The notes under the pieces are model-generated. The model saw only the letters and a list, made by a program, of their open reading frames with translations. It made no database searches and was not told the origin of the DNA. A program made the position numbers and the translations under genes. A stretch of DNA of 64,000 nucleotides from Bacteroides sp. M10 (GTDB lineage Bacteria > Bacteroidota > Bacteroidia > Bacteroidales > Bacteroidaceae). Where the stretch lies: positions 5,786,501 to 5,850,500 of the forward strand of contig NZ_CP060488.1 in NCBI RefSeq assembly GCF_014334015.1, given 5' to 3'. Shown here in pieces: positions 7,931 through 61,488 of this stretch (its first letter is position 1; each line of letters opens with the position of its first letter).

Positions 7931-7939
7931 TAACTTTGC
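7931..7939 (+). promoter_or_regulatory. -7 box of the nrdDG promoter
   Basis: TAACTTTGC matches the Bacteroides -7 consensus perfectly. Transcription should begin around 7946, immediately before the 5' strand of the cobalamin riboswitch. A clear -33 TTTG was not found. Confidence 0.6.
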
Positions 7940-7946
7940 CGCCAAC

Positions 7947-8138
7947 ATCGGTTTCCGAAATGGCATTATCACCAGACGGAATTAAAAGGGAATCCAGTGA
8001 AAATCCGGAACTATCCCCGTAGCTGTAAGTTTTATCTCTCTCATAAAAAAGAGAAATGTTATGGCATTCATTTGCCACTGATTCATGAAACGGATCGGGA
8101 AGGCGCCACAACAAAAACAAGTCAGAAGACCTGCCGAT
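7947..8138 (+). promoter_or_regulatory. Cobalamin (B12) riboswitch upstream of nrdDG
   Basis: The core GGGAATCCAGTGAAAATCC, then CCCCGTAGCTGTAAG and later GTCAGAAGACCTGCCGAT match the conserved segments of the cobalamin riboswitch (B12 box and the AGAAGACCTGCC element). The first ATCGG (from 7947) can pair with the last CCGAT (8134-8138) as the closing P1 helix. About 145 nt separate it from the nrdD start, room for an expression platform. The element implies that anaerobic ribonucleotide reductase is turned down when B12 is plentiful, as expected if a B12-dependent class II enzyme exists elsewhere in the genome. Confidence 0.88.
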
Positions 8139-8282
8139 AAAATTTCCGTTATTCCAGGCTTTCGGGTGAAAGGCAATAGAACGAATCGTACAGGTCCATT
8201 TTATTACAAGTCTCCAGAAATTGTCGTGCATGAATAACTATGTAGGCACTAAATCTATTTTGTTAATTCTTAAAATATAGGT

Positions 8283-50972: not shown

Positions 50973-53219
50973 TTAATCACCCAACAGTAATTTAGTCACA
51001 GCGGCAGTATTCAATGCCCATTCACGGGTATATATCTCATCCGCTTCCGGAATATCAACCAACTTCAATCCCTGCGCCTGCGCTTTGACGGCTAACAGTT
51101 CACCGACAGTTGTTTTCGCTTCCAGCTTATCCAGATACTTTTCAATGGTCTGTGTATCCAAAGCAAGAATCGTCTGTCCACCAAAAGGAATTTCCAGCCA
51201 AACGATTTCCCGTTCTTTCACTTTCAGAACTCCGAAAACAAGTCCTTTCTGCAAACTTTGGGAAATACGTACCTGATGTTGTACGCAAGAAGGATCGTAA
51301 GCTACTCCTGTTCTTTCCGATATCTTCATTGGATAGACAGAGTTCATCCAACCTACCACCAGATTAGGAGCGATAGTCCCATTGCTATATGCATTGCAAG
51401 TGAAAGCGACATATTCCGCACCTACCCGGTTCAGTTCATTCAAATCCAGCTCGATATATTCGGCAGTACCTTTCTTATCAGGAATACCTCGGATATCCCC
51501 GCTATGTTTAGCGCCAATAGCTTGCAAGTTGAAGAAGGAACAAACTTCTGTTGTGGAAGGCAAAGTGATATGACAACTTAAGTCCATGTCAAGATGCTGT
51601 GCCGGAAGCCCTTTTCCCCACTGCATAAACAATCGCACTTTATCTCCCTCTACCGAGAAACGCGTTCCCTGCAAAGCACAGGAAGTATCCTGAATTGTTT
51701 CGCTACGATCACCGATAGCCAACGGAATATGGAACAACATAGGGTCAATATACATACTTTTGTTTTCACTTTCGACAGCTGCACTGGCGAAACGGGCAGC
51801 TACGACTTCCTTACACAAATCCTGTACATCCTTCACCATCGCTTTTAGCTGATCCTCCATATACAGCCCCACCAAATAATGAGGTTCTATCAAAAGAGCA
51901 TCCCCCCCTAAAGGTTTCACCATTCTCTTACGTCCCGGTTCAAAGTAGCTCTCTGCATACATACCCAAAGTAACGACCAAACGTGCCGGCAACAAATGAA
52001 CCACTTCTTTAAATGCAGCCAACGTCTCTTCCGCTCCGAACCAAAGCATATTCGCAAATAAAGAACGTGCAAACATACCCGGTCGCTGCTTTAATAAAGC
52101 AAATGTCTGTTTCGCATCCGCCTTCAAACGGTTGCGCTCCACTTCTCCCTGCCAAACGGTATATGCCTGGCGGTAGAATATATCCATCAATTCCTTCAAA
52201 TTTCCGAATTCCGGCTTACGGGCATATTCCGCCAGACGCAACGCACGTATCATACGTACCCACATCTCTCTTTTCGGATGCATGATTTCGCAAACCTTCT
52301 CCGGAGCCATTGTCAGGTTGTTCAACCAAAGAGCTACCATTTTACATTCACGACGCGTATATTTCAACTTCAACTCCTCACGCTTCGCTTGAGCTGCCGA
52401 ACGACTTTTATCCAAAACTCCACATATATGTGTGTTGTTTCTACCTGTTTTACGGATAATAGTCTTAGGCTCTATGATTTGCAGGAATCCGGTTTTCTTA
52501 TACCACAGATAACGCAATATATCATTCGGAGTAGAGAAATAGATTTGCGCTTCCTGCGCTCTATCCTGTTCCACCAATGTATCTATCACCAACATCAATG
52601 TCTCCTTCATTTTGATTCCGACTGCCGGTAACGGAAGTTCGCCAAGCATTATTTTCAAGCTATCCGCTTGTGTGGCATCAAGAGCCGTACGCGATTCAAG
52701 CAAATCACAGAAAAAAGCATTCAGCTCCTTGTCCTGCCAAAGTTCCAGCACTTTCAGTTTACTTCCCTGTCCGAAGTATTCCGTAGTAGCCGTTTGGAAT
52801 GGAGTTCCGCAGAACGGACAACCATTGTACCGCTCCATAGGGAATGTATTATCAGGGATCACGTGTCCGCAAGGTAGTTTAACGCCTTCCTGGCTATTAA
52901 ACAGGTTAGCAATCCATGTAACCAGATGATCCAAACGCGTTTCTCCGGTAGGTACATCCCACCCTTTCACCAATGGAGCCCAGTTTAGCGTCACGCCCAA
53001 TGCTTCTTTCATCACCTGAAGAATCATCATCTGTTGAGCCGGATATAACTGATTAACGGCATGCAGCAGTTCTTCGGATAAGCTATATCCTACTTTACGG
53101 AGTTGGGCTACCAATGCAATGGTAGTCGAAGTCAACTCTTCCTGCTTTTTCTCTTCTTCTATCAAAGGCAAATAGATTGCATTCTGCCTGATAGACACTT
53201 TCAACAAATCTTTATTCAT
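50973..53219 (-). CDS. RING-finger and TerD-like domain protein (MXAN_6230/SCO0854-type)
   Basis: 748 residues, cytoplasmic. An N-terminal helical region is followed by a treble-clef RING-like site, LPCGHV...YNGCPFCGTPF (C117, H119, C134, C137). A long helical repeat region (about residues 180-480) includes FALLKQRPGMFARSLFANML. The C-terminal part (about 520-690) has TerD features: LDMDLSCHI, FFNLQ, KHSGD, TAEYIELDLNELN and VAFTCNAYSNG. This matches the MXAN_6230/SCO0854 RING family in my memory. The ATG at 53219 lies 13 nt after RNA element 4. Four structured RNAs stand directly upstream on the same strand, so RNA binding is a strong hypothesis, with the helical repeats as a possible Ro60-like ring. 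Confidence 0.75.
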   Translation of the reverse strand: MNKDLLKVSIRQNAIYLPLIEEEKKQEELTSTTIALVAQLRKVGYSLSEELLHAVNQLYPAQQMMILQVMKEALGVTLNWAPLVKGWDVPTGETRLDHLVTWIANLFNSQEGVKLPCGHVIPDNTFPMERYNGCPFCGTPFQTATTEYFGQGSKLKVLELWQDKELNAFFCDLLESRTALDATQADSLKIMLGELPLPAVGIKMKETLMLVIDTLVEQDRAQEAQIYFSTPNDILRYLWYKKTGFLQIIEPKTIIRKTGRNNTHICGVLDKSRSAAQAKREELKLKYTRRECKMVALWLNNLTMAPEKVCEIMHPKREMWVRMIRALRLAEYARKPEFGNLKELMDIFYRQAYTVWQGEVERNRLKADAKQTFALLKQRPGMFARSLFANMLWFGAEETLAAFKEVVHLLPARLVVTLGMYAESYFEPGRKRMVKPLGGDALLIEPHYLVGLYMEDQLKAMVKDVQDLCKEVVAARFASAAVESENKSMYIDPMLFHIPLAIGDRSETIQDTSCALQGTRFSVEGDKVRLFMQWGKGLPAQHLDMDLSCHITLPSTTEVCSFFNLQAIGAKHSGDIRGIPDKKGTAEYIELDLNELNRVGAEYVAFTCNAYSNGTIAPNLVVGWMNSVYPMKISERTGVAYDPSCVQHQVRISQSLQKGLVFGVLKVKEREIVWLEIPFGGQTILALDTQTIEKYLDKLEAKTTVGELLAVKAQAQGLKLVDIPEADEIYTREWALNTAAVTKLLLGD

Positions 53220-53231
53220 AACTTTGTTTTT

Positions 53232-53310
53232 TTTAAGTAAGGTAATCGGAAGACTGTGAATCAATGGAGCATTCCTGCGGTTTTGAAGTAAGTCTTCCTT
53301 GACCTTAGTT
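53232..53310 (-). ncRNA. Structured RNA element 4 (leader of the RING/TerD gene)
   Basis: On the minus strand AACTAAGGT pairs with ACCTTACTT (8 of 9), enclosing the loop pair CAA / GATT and then the perfect 7-bp helix GGAAGAC / GTCTTCC; TTACTTC follows the first helix strand. Order is GGTCAA first and GATTACC last, as in element 3. It begins right after the T-run of element 1 and ends 13 nt before the ATG, so it may also regulate translation of the protein. Confidence 0.7.
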
Positions 53311-53317
53311 GATAAAA

Positions 53318-53419
53318 AGAGGTAGAACAGGCCGGATTCGAACCAGCGTTATCCACCGTTAAGAAGTAAGCCCCGGTTGACCTCATTTCAGATAATCCCG
53401 AAGCTACTGTCCTACCTCT
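53318..53419 (-). ncRNA. Structured RNA element 1, tRNA-like with 13-bp closing stem
   Basis: On the minus strand AGAGGTAGGACAG pairs with CTGTTCTACCTCT, a 13-bp stem (one G-U) whose inner seven pairs match an acceptor stem, followed by TTTTT. Inside: TA (tRNA positions 8-9), the helix GCTTCGG / CCGGGGC around GATT-ATC ... GGT-CAA, then TTACTTC, and a T-arm GCTGG-TTCGAAT-CCGGC. There is no D-arm and no anticodon arm; the motif helix takes their place. It cannot be a normal tRNA. Confidence 0.75.
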
Positions 53420-53433
53420 ATATTTATTTTTTG

Positions 53434-53553
53434 TGGAGCAGGCCGGAGTCGAACCGACGACGGTCACGGGATAGGAGTAAATCTTAATTGACCTTTTTCA
53501 TCAGGATAATCTCAAGATTAAAGATGATGCTCTACCCACTGAGCTACTGCCCC
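53434..53553 (-). ncRNA. Structured RNA element 2, tRNA-like with intact D-arm and T-arm
   Basis: 120 nt on the minus strand. Acceptor GGGGCAG / CTGCTCC plus A73; TA; D-arm GCTC-AGTGGGTA-GAGC; T-arm GTCGG-TTCGACT-CCGGC: all tRNA-like. Between the arms, the anticodon arm is replaced by the 7-bp helix ATCTTGA / TTAAGAT capped by GATT-ATC, an 11-nt loop and GGT-CAA, with TTACTCC following. No CCA is encoded. A search for an anticodon loop with U33 fails. The tRNA-mimic reading is therefore stronger than a tRNA gene. Confidence 0.78.
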
Positions 53554-53558
53554 TTTAC

Positions 53559-53643
53559 GAAACAGGAAAACTGATAATCGTATGAGTCAATATCTTAACA
53601 GGATGTATGGAAGTAACCCGTACTTGACCTGTTTTCTTGTTTC
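53559..53643 (-). ncRNA. Structured RNA element 3, Y-RNA-like stem-loop
   Basis: On the minus strand GAAACAAGAAAAC pairs with GTTTTCCTGTTTC (12 of 13). Inside this end-to-end stem come GGT / ATC, the loop pair CAA / GATT and a 7-bp helix GTACGGG / CTCATAC (6 of 7), with TTACTTC after the first strand. A -7 box TATCTTTGT at 53648-53656 should start transcription around 53641, at the 5' end of this stem. The layout, ends paired and the conserved site partway up, is that of a Y RNA. Confidence 0.72.
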
Positions 53644-53647
53644 TTCG

Positions 53648-53687
53648 ACAAAGATAGATGCAGTGGTGCGCAGCCTTTTTGCGCAGC
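53648..53687 (-). promoter_or_regulatory. Promoter of the RNA cluster, with a direct repeat upstream
   Basis: The minus-strand -7 box TATCTTTGT lies at 53648-53656. Upstream, TGCGCAGC (plus-strand reading) occurs twice, at 53667-53674 and 53680-53687, spaced 13 bp; GCTGCGCA on the minus strand. The repeat occupies the -33 region, where TTTG is absent, so an activator site is plausible. Confidence 0.5.
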
Positions 53688-53858
53688 TAAAACTTTTTTG
53701 CTCTTTTGAAGAAAAAACAGTAAAAAATGAATAGTTGAGGGCTATTTTACGAAAATTATAGAAGAAAGACAGAGACACATAGGTGATAACTCAAGCGTTT
53801 TCATACTTTTGTGCATAGTAAAGATATGAATATCTCTCCCAACAATAAATACAATATT

Positions 53859-54578
53859 ATGAAAAGAGCATTTATTTATAAAGATGAGAAATCTCACAAA
53901 TTTTGGTGCATTGATTATAGTGGCTGTGATTTTGCCGTAAATTACGGTAAGTTCGACAGTATCGGCAAATTTGAAATCAAGGAGTTCGATACGGAAGAAG
54001 AGTGCCTGAAACAAGCTGAAAAACTGATTCACTCAAAAGAGAAAAAAGGATATGTAGAAGATACCAGTTTCAACTTCATGAACAGGATTTATATTGATTC
54101 TGAAGAATATGGCTTGCATCCCAAAACTTCCCATCCCCGATTTACGGAACACTTCACGGAAGAGTTCTATTACGATTGTGCAGACGAAGAAGCACCATTC
54201 GGCAGCGATGAAGGAAGTGATACCTTAGATTCTCTTGAAGAATCTATCAGAAAGAATCCCAAGCTCAACTTTTCGGACTATCCTAAGTATTTGATAGAAC
54301 ACGATTGGGGCATGGAATATATGCCTGTCGAAACTCTCGAACCGGAAAAGGTCAAAAAACTGGCTTCGAAAAAGGAAATGGATATGACGCAGAGCGACAT
54401 GGTGACTTATGCCACCGCTTTTGGGCAAATTAAAATCACAGGAAATCTCTCACCCGATCTGCAGGAACGTGCCATTAATGCCATAAAAAGACTTTCTCTG
54501 GTTTGGGAAAACGAACTGACAGAAATCCAAACCAAAATGATTGATGATTTACTTTCATTTACTATGAAAAAAGACTGA
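53859..54578 (+). CDS. WGR domain protein
   Basis: 239 residues. The N-terminal MKRAFIYKDEKSHKFWCIDY and VNYGKFDSIGKF closely parallel the WGR domain of the protein at 5090-6163, including the length and spacing (MKR..., then VNYGK). After residue 75 the sequence departs: an acidic middle (EEAPFGSDEGSDTLDSLEES) and a helical C-terminal part without LRRs. WGR domains often bind nucleic acid. It is divergent from the RNA/RING cluster, its start 200 nt from the cluster promoter, so a joint function is worth considering. Confidence 0.75.
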   Translation: MKRAFIYKDEKSHKFWCIDYSGCDFAVNYGKFDSIGKFEIKEFDTEEECLKQAEKLIHSKEKKGYVEDTSFNFMNRIYIDSEEYGLHPKTSHPRFTEHFTEEFYYDCADEEAPFGSDEGSDTLDSLEESIRKNPKLNFSDYPKYLIEHDWGMEYMPVETLEPEKVKKLASKKEMDMTQSDMVTYATAFGQIKITGNLSPDLQERAINAIKRLSLVWENELTEIQTKMIDDLLSFTMKKD

Positions 54579-59646: not shown

Positions 59647-61488
59647 GAAATTGGTTCTTCGTCAAATTTGGTGGTACTTCTTCTATTGTGAATAAATAAT
59701 CTTCGCTCTCAGTAGTTTAATTCCTGCCCTATTGTACATCTGTCTTTTTACCGCTTTAATTTTATTCACTGTCCCCTCCAGTAATCCGTTACTGAAGGGG
59801 ATATCAATAGCTGCCTGTACTGCCTCCCAGTCTTTTTCAATACCATATGCAAAGTTCGTTAGTGGCATATTCCGTGTTGCCTTCGCTTTTTCAATCCACT
59901 TTCTAATATCCTTATCATAAGTGTTCCCATTAATCATGTCTCTGAAATTTTGACACACGCTTAAGAGTTCTTTTATCTGTGGTGAGGACTTATACAGTTC
60001 CGCTAGTTTAGGATTATCCGATTCTCCCTTTAGAATGTATTTGCGTATCTGATTCTGTGAAACTCTCTGTATTTTACTTCCGTTTTCAATGCTCTCATTA
60101 TGCTCCTTGATTTCCTTCCTCTTTTGTTGATACCTTTTTCGCAAGCTGGATGTTATCCTTCCAATAAGTGCGCCACTGATTTTACTCCCCATTTTTTGCG
60201 CCAATATTTTTCGAGTAATACAGCCCGCACTAATGATTGTAGCCAGTTCGGATACATATTTAAGAGCTGTCTTCTGTTGCTCATTCAAGTATGCCCCTAT
60301 TCTTCTGTTGTGAATGATCTTATAAATGTAGCGACTTTTCTTACCCAAATGTGTGGCTGTCTGCTCAATGGTCATCCCCTGCATTTTTAAGTTCAAGCTT
60401 TCCCTGTATATCTTTAATTTTTCTCTGTGTCGGACATCTCCCATGTTAAATATGTCCTGAAGAATTAACGAAGAAGCCGTGTCTCTGTCAGGATATTCGT
60501 ATTTGAGCTTTTTCTTGGTCTGACGAATCATTTTCTCTATTTCCGGTATCATCGTGTCCGTCATATTCTTGATTAGATGGAACCGGTCGCAGATTTGTGT
60601 AACACCAGGGATTATTCTGTTTATAGCTTCTGTGAAACATCTTCCACGGTCTCTCGTTATATATTGTATTTGAGGATTCCGGATGAGCCAGTTATCAAGT
60701 GCTTCTCCGTTTCTATCCTCTAACAAAGCAATAGGTATGTGTGTCATCTGGTCTACGACCACACTCATATAATCCTTACCTTTTTTATAGGCAAAATCAT
60801 CAATACCTACATAAATACTTTTATTATGCATAGGATTATGTTGTCCGCACTGTTGTAGGATGCGTAAGCAGGAAGAACTACTGGCCGTTATATGGAACAG
60901 TTGTAAAAGAGAAGAGGCCTTTCGGGAAGTAAGTTCCAAGCTTATCGATCTGATGCGTTCCTCAACAAGATAGCTCCGTCTACCATACCGACGAGCCAGA
61001 AAAGACAACGGTTCGCAGAATATTTTTTGTGGACAAGAAACATTATCACAATAATATTTGCCAACCTTTATGACTAACTCCAAAGTATGACCGTAAACTT
61101 CAAGATCCTGAATATGACGGGAGTAGTAACTGTGCAATCGGTGACTGAAATGTCCGCAATAAGGACAGGAAGCCCCCTTGCCAGCCGTATGTAGAAAGAC
61201 CGTCAATGAGCTAACAGCTTCAGAGATACCATCTTGTTGCAGATTATCGTAGCCAAGACTGAATCTGAAATCATGGAATAATCCCCTATTTGTAGGAGTA
61301 TTTTCTTTTTTTGATGTATATTTGTACGTTGTAGATATGACTTGTTGCATTGTAACTCTTAATGATGTGGTGTCTTTAAAGTTACTAAAAAGCAAACATA
61401 TCTACAACTTTTAATAGGATTAAGAAAGAAGAAGACCGGTGAAATAAAAAAGAGATTACCACCAAATTTGACGAAGAACCACGAAATT
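59647..61488. mobile_element. ISL3-family insertion sequence with 8-bp target duplication
   Basis: Element at 59655-61480 (1826 bp). Its ends are inverted repeats starting GGTTCTTCGTCAAATTTGGT on the left and the reverse complement on the right. Direct 8-bp copies ACGAAATT flank it at 59647-59654 and 61481-61488. The length of the duplication matches the ISL3 family. The inverted repeats extend at least 22 bp. The intact ends and clean duplication point to a recent insertion. Confidence 0.92.
59683..61350 (-). CDS. ISL3 family transposase
   Basis: 555 residues from the ATG at 61350. An N-terminal zinc-ribbon (CPYCGHFSHRLHSYYSRHI, then CDNVSCPQKIFCE) is the ISL3 zinc finger; the catalytic core has GIDDFAYKKGKDYMSVVVD and ITRDRGRCFTEAI with Asp residues of the DDE triad, then CDRFHLIKNM and a late Glu in the C-terminal part. 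The frame is uninterrupted, so the element may be active. A TTG start at 61395 is possible but less likely. Confidence 0.92.
   Translation of the reverse strand: MQQVISTTYKYTSKKENTPTNRGLFHDFRFSLGYDNLQQDGISEAVSSLTVFLHTAGKGASCPYCGHFSHRLHSYYSRHIQDLEVYGHTLELVIKVGKYYCDNVSCPQKIFCEPLSFLARRYGRRSYLVEERIRSISLELTSRKASSLLQLFHITASSSSCLRILQQCGQHNPMHNKSIYVGIDDFAYKKGKDYMSVVVDQMTHIPIALLEDRNGEALDNWLIRNPQIQYITRDRGRCFTEAINRIIPGVTQICDRFHLIKNMTDTMIPEIEKMIRQTKKKLKYEYPDRDTASSLILQDIFNMGDVRHREKLKIYRESLNLKMQGMTIEQTATHLGKKSRYIYKIIHNRRIGAYLNEQQKTALKYVSELATIISAGCITRKILAQKMGSKISGALIGRITSSLRKRYQQKRKEIKEHNESIENGSKIQRVSQNQIRKYILKGESDNPKLAELYKSSPQIKELLSVCQNFRDMINGNTYDKDIRKWIEKAKATRNMPLTNFAYGIEKDWEAVQAAIDIPFSNGLLEGTVNKIKAVKRQMYNRAGIKLLRAKIIYSQ

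What the first reader, a model, noticed from the sequence alone, without database searches (positions are those of the whole stretch)
53232..53660. Four structured RNAs with one covarying motif, two tRNA-like, directly upstream of a RING/TerD protein
Seen in sequence: on the minus strand four elements contain GGTCAA, a 7-nt helix strand, then TTACTYC, and elsewhere GATTAYC preceded or followed by the partner helix strand. The 7-bp helices are GTACGGG/CTCATAC, ATCTTGA/TTAAGAT, GCTTCGG/CCGGGGC and GGAAGAC/GTCTTCC, all different, all paired (one mismatch in 28), which is strong covariation. GGT pairs with ATC or ACC, leaving the loop pair CAA/GATT. Two elements have acceptor stem and T-arm of a tRNA (one also the D-arm) with the motif in place of the anticodon arm. 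Established: bacterial Y RNAs are encoded near Ro60, and at least one per species carries a tRNA-like domain. Inference: the RING/TerD protein here takes the Ro60-like partner role.
Basis: partly seen in the sequence, partly recalled or inferred. Interest (0 to 1): 0.92.

Follow-up and report, generated by a model that had tools for sequence, protein, structure and literature searches.

The report
Ro60-like RNA-protein system with tRNA mimics
Next to a protein of unknown function, bacteria and some phages carry a family of small folded RNAs, several shaped like tRNAs that lack an anticodon, which are inherited with that protein and appear to belong to the cell's kit for coping with broken RNA.

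Summary
Four RNA elements (minus strand, 53236-53641) share a two-strand module: outer helix, CAA/NAUU internal loop, 8-bp inner helix, UACUYC. Two are tRNA-like and carry it circularly permuted in place of the anticodon arm. The pattern lies within 1 kb upstream of the RING/TerD gene in 101 of 101 loci, antisense 0, with strong covariation. A covariance model over 201 and 295 genomes hit at that gene, plus one contig end. A related UMCUUC motif flanks 12 of 13 distant homologues (antisense 7), with a fully paired helix in 7 of them (antisense 0). The protein's middle domain is predicted to resemble the Ro60 ring; a TerD fold follows. An operator precedes the array in 73 of 101 loci (control 1 of 92); in relatives it also precedes RNA ligase, Hen1 and nucleotidyltransferase-like operons, even unlinked. 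Best reading: a Ro60/Y-RNA-like RNP of an RNA-repair response, built from a different protein and RNA family. Expression and binding are inferred. No Rfam match but tRNA above cut-off; ten literature searches listed no such RNA.

The parts
53667..53685 (-). Operator TGCGCA-N7-TGCGCA, 19-bp inverted repeat
   Evidence: Such a site lies within 300 nt upstream of the first paired element in 73 of 101 loci, control window 1 of 92; anywhere in the upstream sequence held in 82 of 101. Only site in the nearest held genome G001, where the backward control also gives 1.
53649..53656 (-). TATCTTTG, possible Bacteroidota-type -7 promoter box (consensus TAnnTTTG recalled, from no call)
   Evidence: Seen in the sequence. 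TAnnTTTG follows the operator within 40 nt in only 21 of 73 loci, so this is weak support.
53561..53641 (-). Element A, topology I: GGTCAA 53624-53629, helix 53617-53623 / 53580-53586, TTACTTC 53610-53616, GATTATC 53573-53579, outer helix 53631-53641 / 53561-53571; perhaps the 5' end of the transcript
   Evidence: CM R1 hits the same element in G001. Weak fold alone, z -1.1.
53434..53553 (-). Element B: tRNA-like RNA with acceptor stem, D-arm and T-arm; permuted module (topology II, 53468-53524) in place of the anticodon arm
   Evidence: Rfam tRNA 47.1 bits; module in alignment A3. Minimum-energy fold does not show the module.
53319..53418 (-). Element C: acceptor stem (extended) and T-arm, no D-arm; permuted module (53357-53410)
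   Evidence: fold z -3.95 with the module in the minimum-energy structure; weak tmRNA match, 16 bits against gathering 47.
53236..53309 (-). Element D, topology I, in the leader just before the start codon
   Evidence: fold z -5.61.
50973..53219 (-). RING/TerD protein, 748 aa: RING-like CxH...CxxC at about 117-137, helical domain about 150-484, TerD fold about 520-695

Best explanation
The four elements belong to a new family of structured RNAs that are the dedicated RNA partners of the RING/TerD protein. Array and gene are probably transcribed together under a TRCGCA-N7-TGCGYA operator, most likely bound by a WYL-domain regulator. The tRNA-like elements give tRNA-processing ends (RNase P on the 5' side, tRNA 3' maturation); the others stay as leader hairpins or are cut free. 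Every element presents the same module, which I propose is the binding site of the protein's Ro60-like helical ring. The other half of each RNA differs: a plain loop, or a tRNA body without anticodon arm. The tRNA-like bodies would bring tRNA-handling enzymes, or stand in for broken tRNAs, so the RNP gathers repair or decay activity at damaged RNA. The same operator stands before T4-type RNA ligase-Pnkp, Hen1 and nucleotidyltransferase-like operons in relatives; RtcB and sets of extra tRNA genes lie beside the array in others. SHOWN by computation: the RNA structures, co-inheritance with the protein, the shared operator sequence, the repair neighbourhood. SUGGESTED by models: the Ro60-like ring. 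INFERRED: expression, processing, binding, WYL as the regulator, induction by damage, and what the tRNA mimics do.
Confidence: 0.74

Rival explanations
1. The elements are only a cis-regulatory leader: the protein binds the hairpins in its own mRNA and shuts off its own expression.
For: Element D ends next to the start codon; in Bacteroidota the arrays found lie upstream; some loci have a single element.
Against: At distant homologues in Variovorax, Vibrio, Niallia and phage Weasels2 the elements lie downstream of the gene. Up to eight elements (L033, two arrays) and tRNA bodies with D- and T-arms are not needed for a leader. Autoregulation could exist in addition.
Confidence: 0.1
2. A type III toxin-antitoxin system: tandem RNA units upstream of a gene inhibit a toxin protein.
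For: Tandem structured RNAs directly upstream of one protein gene, patchy distribution (18 of 201 genomes). The type III layout is recalled, from no call.
Against: Units differ in sequence, topology and body, whereas type III repeats are near-identical (recalled). Pfam gives only a weak RING match and PADLOC nothing. RNAs lie 3' of the gene in some distant loci.
Confidence: 0.05
3. Decoys: the tRNA-like RNAs soak up tRNA-cleaving or tRNA-modifying enzymes of phages or competitors, and the protein stabilises or presents them. This can coexist with the best explanation.
For: T-arms in 89 of 101 loci, extra tRNA genes beside some arrays, homologues in phages with tRNA genes. Hughes et al. (PMC7790460, passages read) raise competitive inhibition by YrlA.
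Against: The anticodon arm, the usual target, is what is missing. Most topology I elements and 12 of 101 loci show no T-arm. Decoying does not explain the invariant module.
Confidence: 0.12
4. Decayed tRNA genes and chance helices.
For: B still scores as a tRNA; A folds little better than shuffles, B modestly.
Against: Covariation, invariant spacing of 7, 101 to 0 strand bias within 1 kb and co-occurrence with one gene.
Confidence: 0.005

Closest known systems
Ro60 (Rsr) and Y RNAs with the rsr-yrlBA-rtcBA RNA-repair operon
   Same: A helical-ring protein (by model), small RNAs encoded next to it, some with a tRNA-like domain, near RNA-repair genes; Salmonella operon described in PMC7790460 (passages read). 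A distant homologue lies near rtcR, three small genes between.
   Different: No TROVE match by Pfam; TerD and a RING-like segment instead of a vWA domain; no Rfam match other than tRNA above cut-off; an array of several RNAs with an invariant UACUYC module in two permuted forms; WYL genes and a common operator, not RtcR, in Bacteroidota loci. Of 18 family genomes with this protein 14 have no TROVE hit.
NF041916 MXAN_6230/SCO0854 family RING domain-containing proteins
   Same: Homologous over two long stretches (script alignment); function unknown.
   Different: The window protein scores 134 against a cut-off of 600, so it is a separate branch.
Pnkp-Hen1, T4 RNA ligase 1 and RtcB RNA-repair systems
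   Same: These enzymes stand beside the array or under the same operator sequence in relatives.
   Different: Known descriptions, as recalled, include no RNA array or RING/TerD protein.
tmRNA
   Same: tRNA body without a normal anticodon arm; element C gives a weak tmRNA match (16 bits).
   Different: Below the gathering score of 47; the module fills the place, and about 100 nt is too short for a tag region (recalled).

Membership tests
Ro60/Rsr protein | TROVE domain recognisable by sequence (PF05731) | tested here: not met
   No TROVE in the window protein at E 0.001 nor among the families listed for 43 helical domains at E 1.
Ro60/Rsr protein | Ring of helical repeats | tested here: inconclusive
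Ro60/Rsr protein | C-terminal vWA domain | tested here: not met
Y RNA | Match to a curated Y RNA family | tested here: inconclusive
   Rfam 15 gathering scan gives tRNA only on the array; a permissive scan to E 10 adds sub-threshold tmRNA, permuted tmRNA, S4 leader and SpF41. I did not check whether Rfam holds a bacterial Y RNA model.
Y RNA | Encoded next to the gene of a Ro60-like protein | tested here: met
   Within 1 kb upstream of the RING/TerD gene in 101 of 101 loci; that the protein is Ro60-like is itself only suggested.
Y RNA | A tRNA-like domain in some of the RNAs | tested here: met
   T-arm in 89 of 101 loci (3 antisense), D-arm in 80 of 101 (2 antisense) within 1.2 kb upstream; 12 loci have no T-arm.
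Y RNA | Bound by the partner protein | not testable with these tools
   Needs co-purification.
MXAN_6230/SCO0854 equivalog (NF041916) | Score above the curated cut-off | tested here: not met
   134 bits against 600.
RING finger | Pfam Prok-RING_4 above gathering score | tested here: inconclusive
   25.7 bits against 27; C117, C134, C137 invariant in 19 sequences.
tRNA gene | Complete cloverleaf with anticodon | tested here: not met
   ARAGORN finds none in the window; the module takes the place of the anticodon arm in B.
tmRNA | Rfam match above gathering score | tested here: not met
   16 bits against 47.
Known anti-phage defence system | PADLOC model match of the protein | tested here: not met
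   No match.

The most novel reading that the evidence does not exclude
A second, separately built Ro60-like RNP exists in at least five bacterial phyla and in phages. Its RING/TerD protein carries a ring that either converged on or diverged beyond recognition from TROVE. Its RNA partners are a modular set in which one invariant protein-binding module is grafted, in two circularly permuted forms, onto plain hairpins or onto tRNA bodies in place of the anticodon arm. Array, protein, extra tRNAs and repair enzymes form one damage-induced response to tRNA cleavage.
Probability: 0.45. Interest if true: 0.96.

Novelty: new variant of a known kind. Interest (0 to 1): 0.93.

Why it matters
It gives an RNA partner and a testable function to a widespread protein family of unknown role (4112 relatives at E 0.001 among the 7996 candidates scored, 120 listed). 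It adds a structured RNA family that matches nothing in Rfam 15 but tRNA above cut-off, with natural chimaeras of tRNA and a presumed protein-binding module. It also supplies an independent comparison for Ro60 and Y RNAs, whose role in RNA repair operons is open (PMC7790460, passages): what two systems with different proteins and RNAs share (ring, tRNA mimic, repair enzymes) is likely to be what matters. The operator makes the response and its members predictable in some genomes.

Tried and rejected
Strict pattern GGT[CT]AA-N5-9-TTACTYC missed many loci; reading them showed that the outer helix and the first loop base vary, so the later pattern starts at AA. Rfam for a named family: tRNA on the arrays examined, plus tRNA-Sec for a neighbouring tRNA gene in L041. 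Viral contigs with the protein alignment: 6 stretches, none a relative. CM R2 finds nothing beyond Bacteroidota, and R1 below E 0.01 outside Bacteroidota only phage Weasels2, so the other distant elements rest on pattern and pairing. Whole-protein fold search showed only the TerD part clearly; no Ro60 row appears there. Foldseek for the helical domain not significant. WYL and repair genes in the window: no close homologue. One WYL homologue (67%) in G001 lies far from the array. A -7 box after the operator: 21 of 73 loci only. Considered and set aside: type III toxin-antitoxin, tmRNA, pure leader regulation, tRNA decay.

Limits of the counts. The 101 loci are 80 from the genome-contig scan (of 407 relatives, best 80 kept), 20 from the genome search and the window. 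L018 and L019 were left out as fragments; L016 is cut by its contig. Elements in A2 and A3 were pre-selected for at least 6 of 7 inner pairs, an outer helix of 3 or more, and length or diversity; only one search is unselected. Neighbour-gene counts cover 80 loci with up to 3 kb of flank, some cut shorter by contig ends; families were named from one Pfam-checked member per cluster, the nucleotidyltransferase and HD-like ones by eye. ARAGORN for tRNA clusters was run on 22 loci, chosen partly because T-arms were seen. Distant homologues: 13 of 20 records were fetched; the seven left out are three Variovorax, one Vibrio and one Weasels2 record much like those fetched and two Streptomyces TerD-only matches. 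L127 was dropped from the script alignment because its range held stops.

Literature: ten searches listed no paper on an RNA partner of these proteins; two searches listed 20 of 36 and 10 of 144. Five papers were seen as passages only (PMC7790460, PMC11090510, PMC7824862, PMC7159879, PMC11277228); the rest as listings. Most subscription papers are not held. Burroughs and Aravind 2016 on RNA repair was looked up by a recalled DOI and not held; Chen et al. 2014 and 2013 on Y RNAs likewise by PMC id. So prior mention there cannot be excluded.

Full report
What is in the window. On the minus strand an operator (53667-53685) and a possible -7 box (53649-53656) are followed by four RNA elements A, B, C, D between 53641 and 53236 and then by the start codon of a 748-residue protein (53219). 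B is an Rfam tRNA at 47.1 bits, yet ARAGORN finds no tRNA, because the anticodon arm is replaced. C has an acceptor stem and T-arm. Folded alone, D and C are far more stable than shuffles (z -5.6, -4.0), B less so (-2.0), A hardly (-1.1); the minimum-energy fold of B does not show the module.

The module. Strand 1 is outer helix, (C)YAA, seven variable bases, (U/A)UACUYC. Strand 2 is the complement of those seven bases preceded by A (or U), then NAUU, then the outer strand. In alignment A2 (55 topology I elements) the inner helix is 8 bp and all eight pairs show changes on both sides; 89.0% of cells pair against 61.0% in shuffles, 212 cells changed on both sides against 71.1, covariation 0.717 against 0.206, 0 of 500 shuffles. 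In A3 (21 topology II elements) 93.1% against 76.9%, 34 against 8.6 cells, 0 of 500. These sets were pre-selected for pairing. The unselected test is: of 414 elements 356 have a partner with at least 6 of 7 inner pairs and 2 outer pairs, 235 in topology I and 121 in topology II; shuffling N7 gives 28.8; 58 fail.

Two topologies. In topology I the chain closes beyond UACUYC; in topology II it closes beyond the outer helix. So the two strands keep their sequence and register while the connection between them moves: a circular permutation. Topology II is mostly the tRNA-like form: 97 of 121 have a T-arm within 90 nt on the 3' side, 105 a D-arm within 60 nt on the 5' side and 87 both, against 7 of 235 topology I with a T-arm 3'. 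In antisense controls T-arms occur in 3 and D-arms in 2 of 101 regions, against 89 and 80 sense. I read this as a binding site for one protein that is grafted onto different bodies (inference).

Link to the protein. Homologues were collected by protein alone: 18 of 201 family genomes and 5 of 295 class genomes, and 80 loci from named genomes, of 407 found. The pattern AA-N6-8-WTACTYC gives 480 hits upstream in 101 of 101 loci, 421 with spacer 7; antisense 31 hits, 12 with spacer 7. Within 1 kb and with spacer 7 it is 101 of 101 sense and 0 of 101 antisense. In reverse, covariance model R1 hits 16 of the same 201 genomes: 23 of 25 hits lie upstream of the gene, and the other 2, in G048, lie at a contig end where the gene would be cut off. 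Of 17 genomes with more than a fragment of the gene 15 are hit; G172 and G200 carry the module with a variant outer helix, and G050 has only a 39-residue match. Over 295 class genomes 11 of 11 hits, in 4 genomes, lie upstream of the gene; the fifth gene-bearing genome, G034, passed only. Both runs scored only the best 25 or 17 first-look candidates per genome with strict filters, so weak elements elsewhere may be missed.

Beyond Bacteroidota. Distant homologues (22-29% identity) were found in plasmids and phages; 13 records were examined. The motif (U/A)(U/C)(A/C)CUUC lies within 1 kb upstream or 0.8 kb downstream, sense, in 12 of 13 loci: Variovorax, four Streptomyces, Kitasatospora, two Deinococcus, Vibrio, Niallia, and phages Weasels2 and RcXuper; not in phage SCTP-2, which is matched only in the N-terminal fifth. 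Sense hits 33 in 12 loci, antisense 9 in 7 loci, so presence alone is weak. The pairing is the stronger test: the helix before the motif pairs 7 of 7 in 10 of 33 sense hits, in 7 loci (four of the five Streptomyces/Kitasatospora loci, Vibrio, Niallia, Weasels2), against 1.2 in shuffles (maximum 4 of 500) and 0 of 9 antisense. R1 itself finds Weasels2 at E 0.001-0.006, downstream of the gene. By eye, Weasels2 and RcXuper also carry the motif in tRNA-like settings.

RNA repair. In 80 loci with up to 3 kb flank, recurrent neighbour clusters are a WYL regulator (48), RtcB (31), T4-type RNA ligase (16), a nucleotidyltransferase-like protein (11, named by eye, no Pfam hit), an RNase T exonuclease (8), Hen1 (6) and Pnkp (4); 55 of 80 have at least one of the six repair families, 25 none (one member per cluster checked with Pfam). 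The Variovorax homologue is near rtcR with three small genes between, the Weasels2 one lies between tRNA genes and, about 3 kb on, RtcB, and RcXuper's beside tRNA genes, a nucleotidyl transferase and a permuted tmRNA. In 6 of 22 loci scanned, 6 to 12 tRNA genes (leaving out one doubtful call in L058) stand upstream on the same strand; in the two genomes checked there are 68 and 46 tRNA hits in all, so they look like extra copies (inference).

The operator. A 19-bp TRCGCA-N7-TGCGYA-type repeat lies within 300 nt upstream of the first paired element in 73 of 101 loci, against 1 of 92 in a control window further up, and anywhere in the upstream sequence held in 82 of 101; the same wider pattern occurs 46 times in 370,371 bases of gene and downstream sequence, part of it real, since 39 of 78 loci have a site downstream of the gene. 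Genome-wide, G001 has one site, at the array, with a backward control of 1. G317 has three (control 0): at the array, 43 bp before a T4-type ligase-Pnkp operon on another contig, and 22 bp before a nucleotidyltransferase-like pair on a third. G265 has five (control 1), all in this region, two of them 36-37 bp before the ligase and Hen1. G436 has three (control 0), two at the array and one elsewhere that I did not examine. That WYL binds it is inferred from the divergent gene position.

Mechanism and verdict. The best-supported reading is a Ro60/Y-RNA-like ribonucleoprotein within an RNA-repair regulon. As in the Salmonella rsr-yrlBA-rtcBA operon (PMC7790460, passages), a ring protein, small RNAs with a tRNA-like domain and RNA-repair enzymes go together, but here the protein lacks a TROVE signature and vWA domain and the RNAs match no Rfam family but tRNA. 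What the tRNA bodies do, tether enzymes, hold damaged tRNA or act as decoys, is open. It works like Ro60/Y RNA; it is not filed as a member.

Noticed in passing
window 7932-8152 +: Cobalamin riboswitch, 93.6 bits.
   Followed up: no
window 53811-54578 +: WGR-domain protein divergent from the array; the space between holds the operator. No PADLOC match.
   Followed up: partly
window 59683-61395 -: Transposase-like ORF, ISL3-like by eye and recall only, near the window end.
   Followed up: no
L033, -1030 to -761 and -358 to -84 from the gene: The same four-element array occurs twice with identical N7 strands, about 400 nt apart.
   Followed up: partly
L037, L041, L052, L058, L087, L094: Clusters of 6-12 tRNA genes upstream of the array on the same strand; genome G496 (L052) has a second dense cluster at C2:43510-46089.
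   Followed up: partly
L122:2486-2902: Permuted tmRNA (RF04321, RF01849) in phage RcXuper, next to the RING/TerD homologue and tRNA genes.
   Followed up: no
L071:1558-2325 and relatives: A protein without Pfam hit, HD-like by eye, lies upstream on the opposite strand in 44 of 80 loci.
   Followed up: no
L116, L117, L129: vWA genes near two Streptomyces homologues and one Deinococcus homologue, with MoxR or AAA ATPase genes in L117 and L129.
   Followed up: no
L002, L006, L008, L015, L021: By eye, further tRNA-like pieces without an obvious module, some shortened, inside or beside the arrays.
   Followed up: no
G436:C2:50190-50208: One further operator-like site away from the array, genes not looked at.
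   Followed up: no
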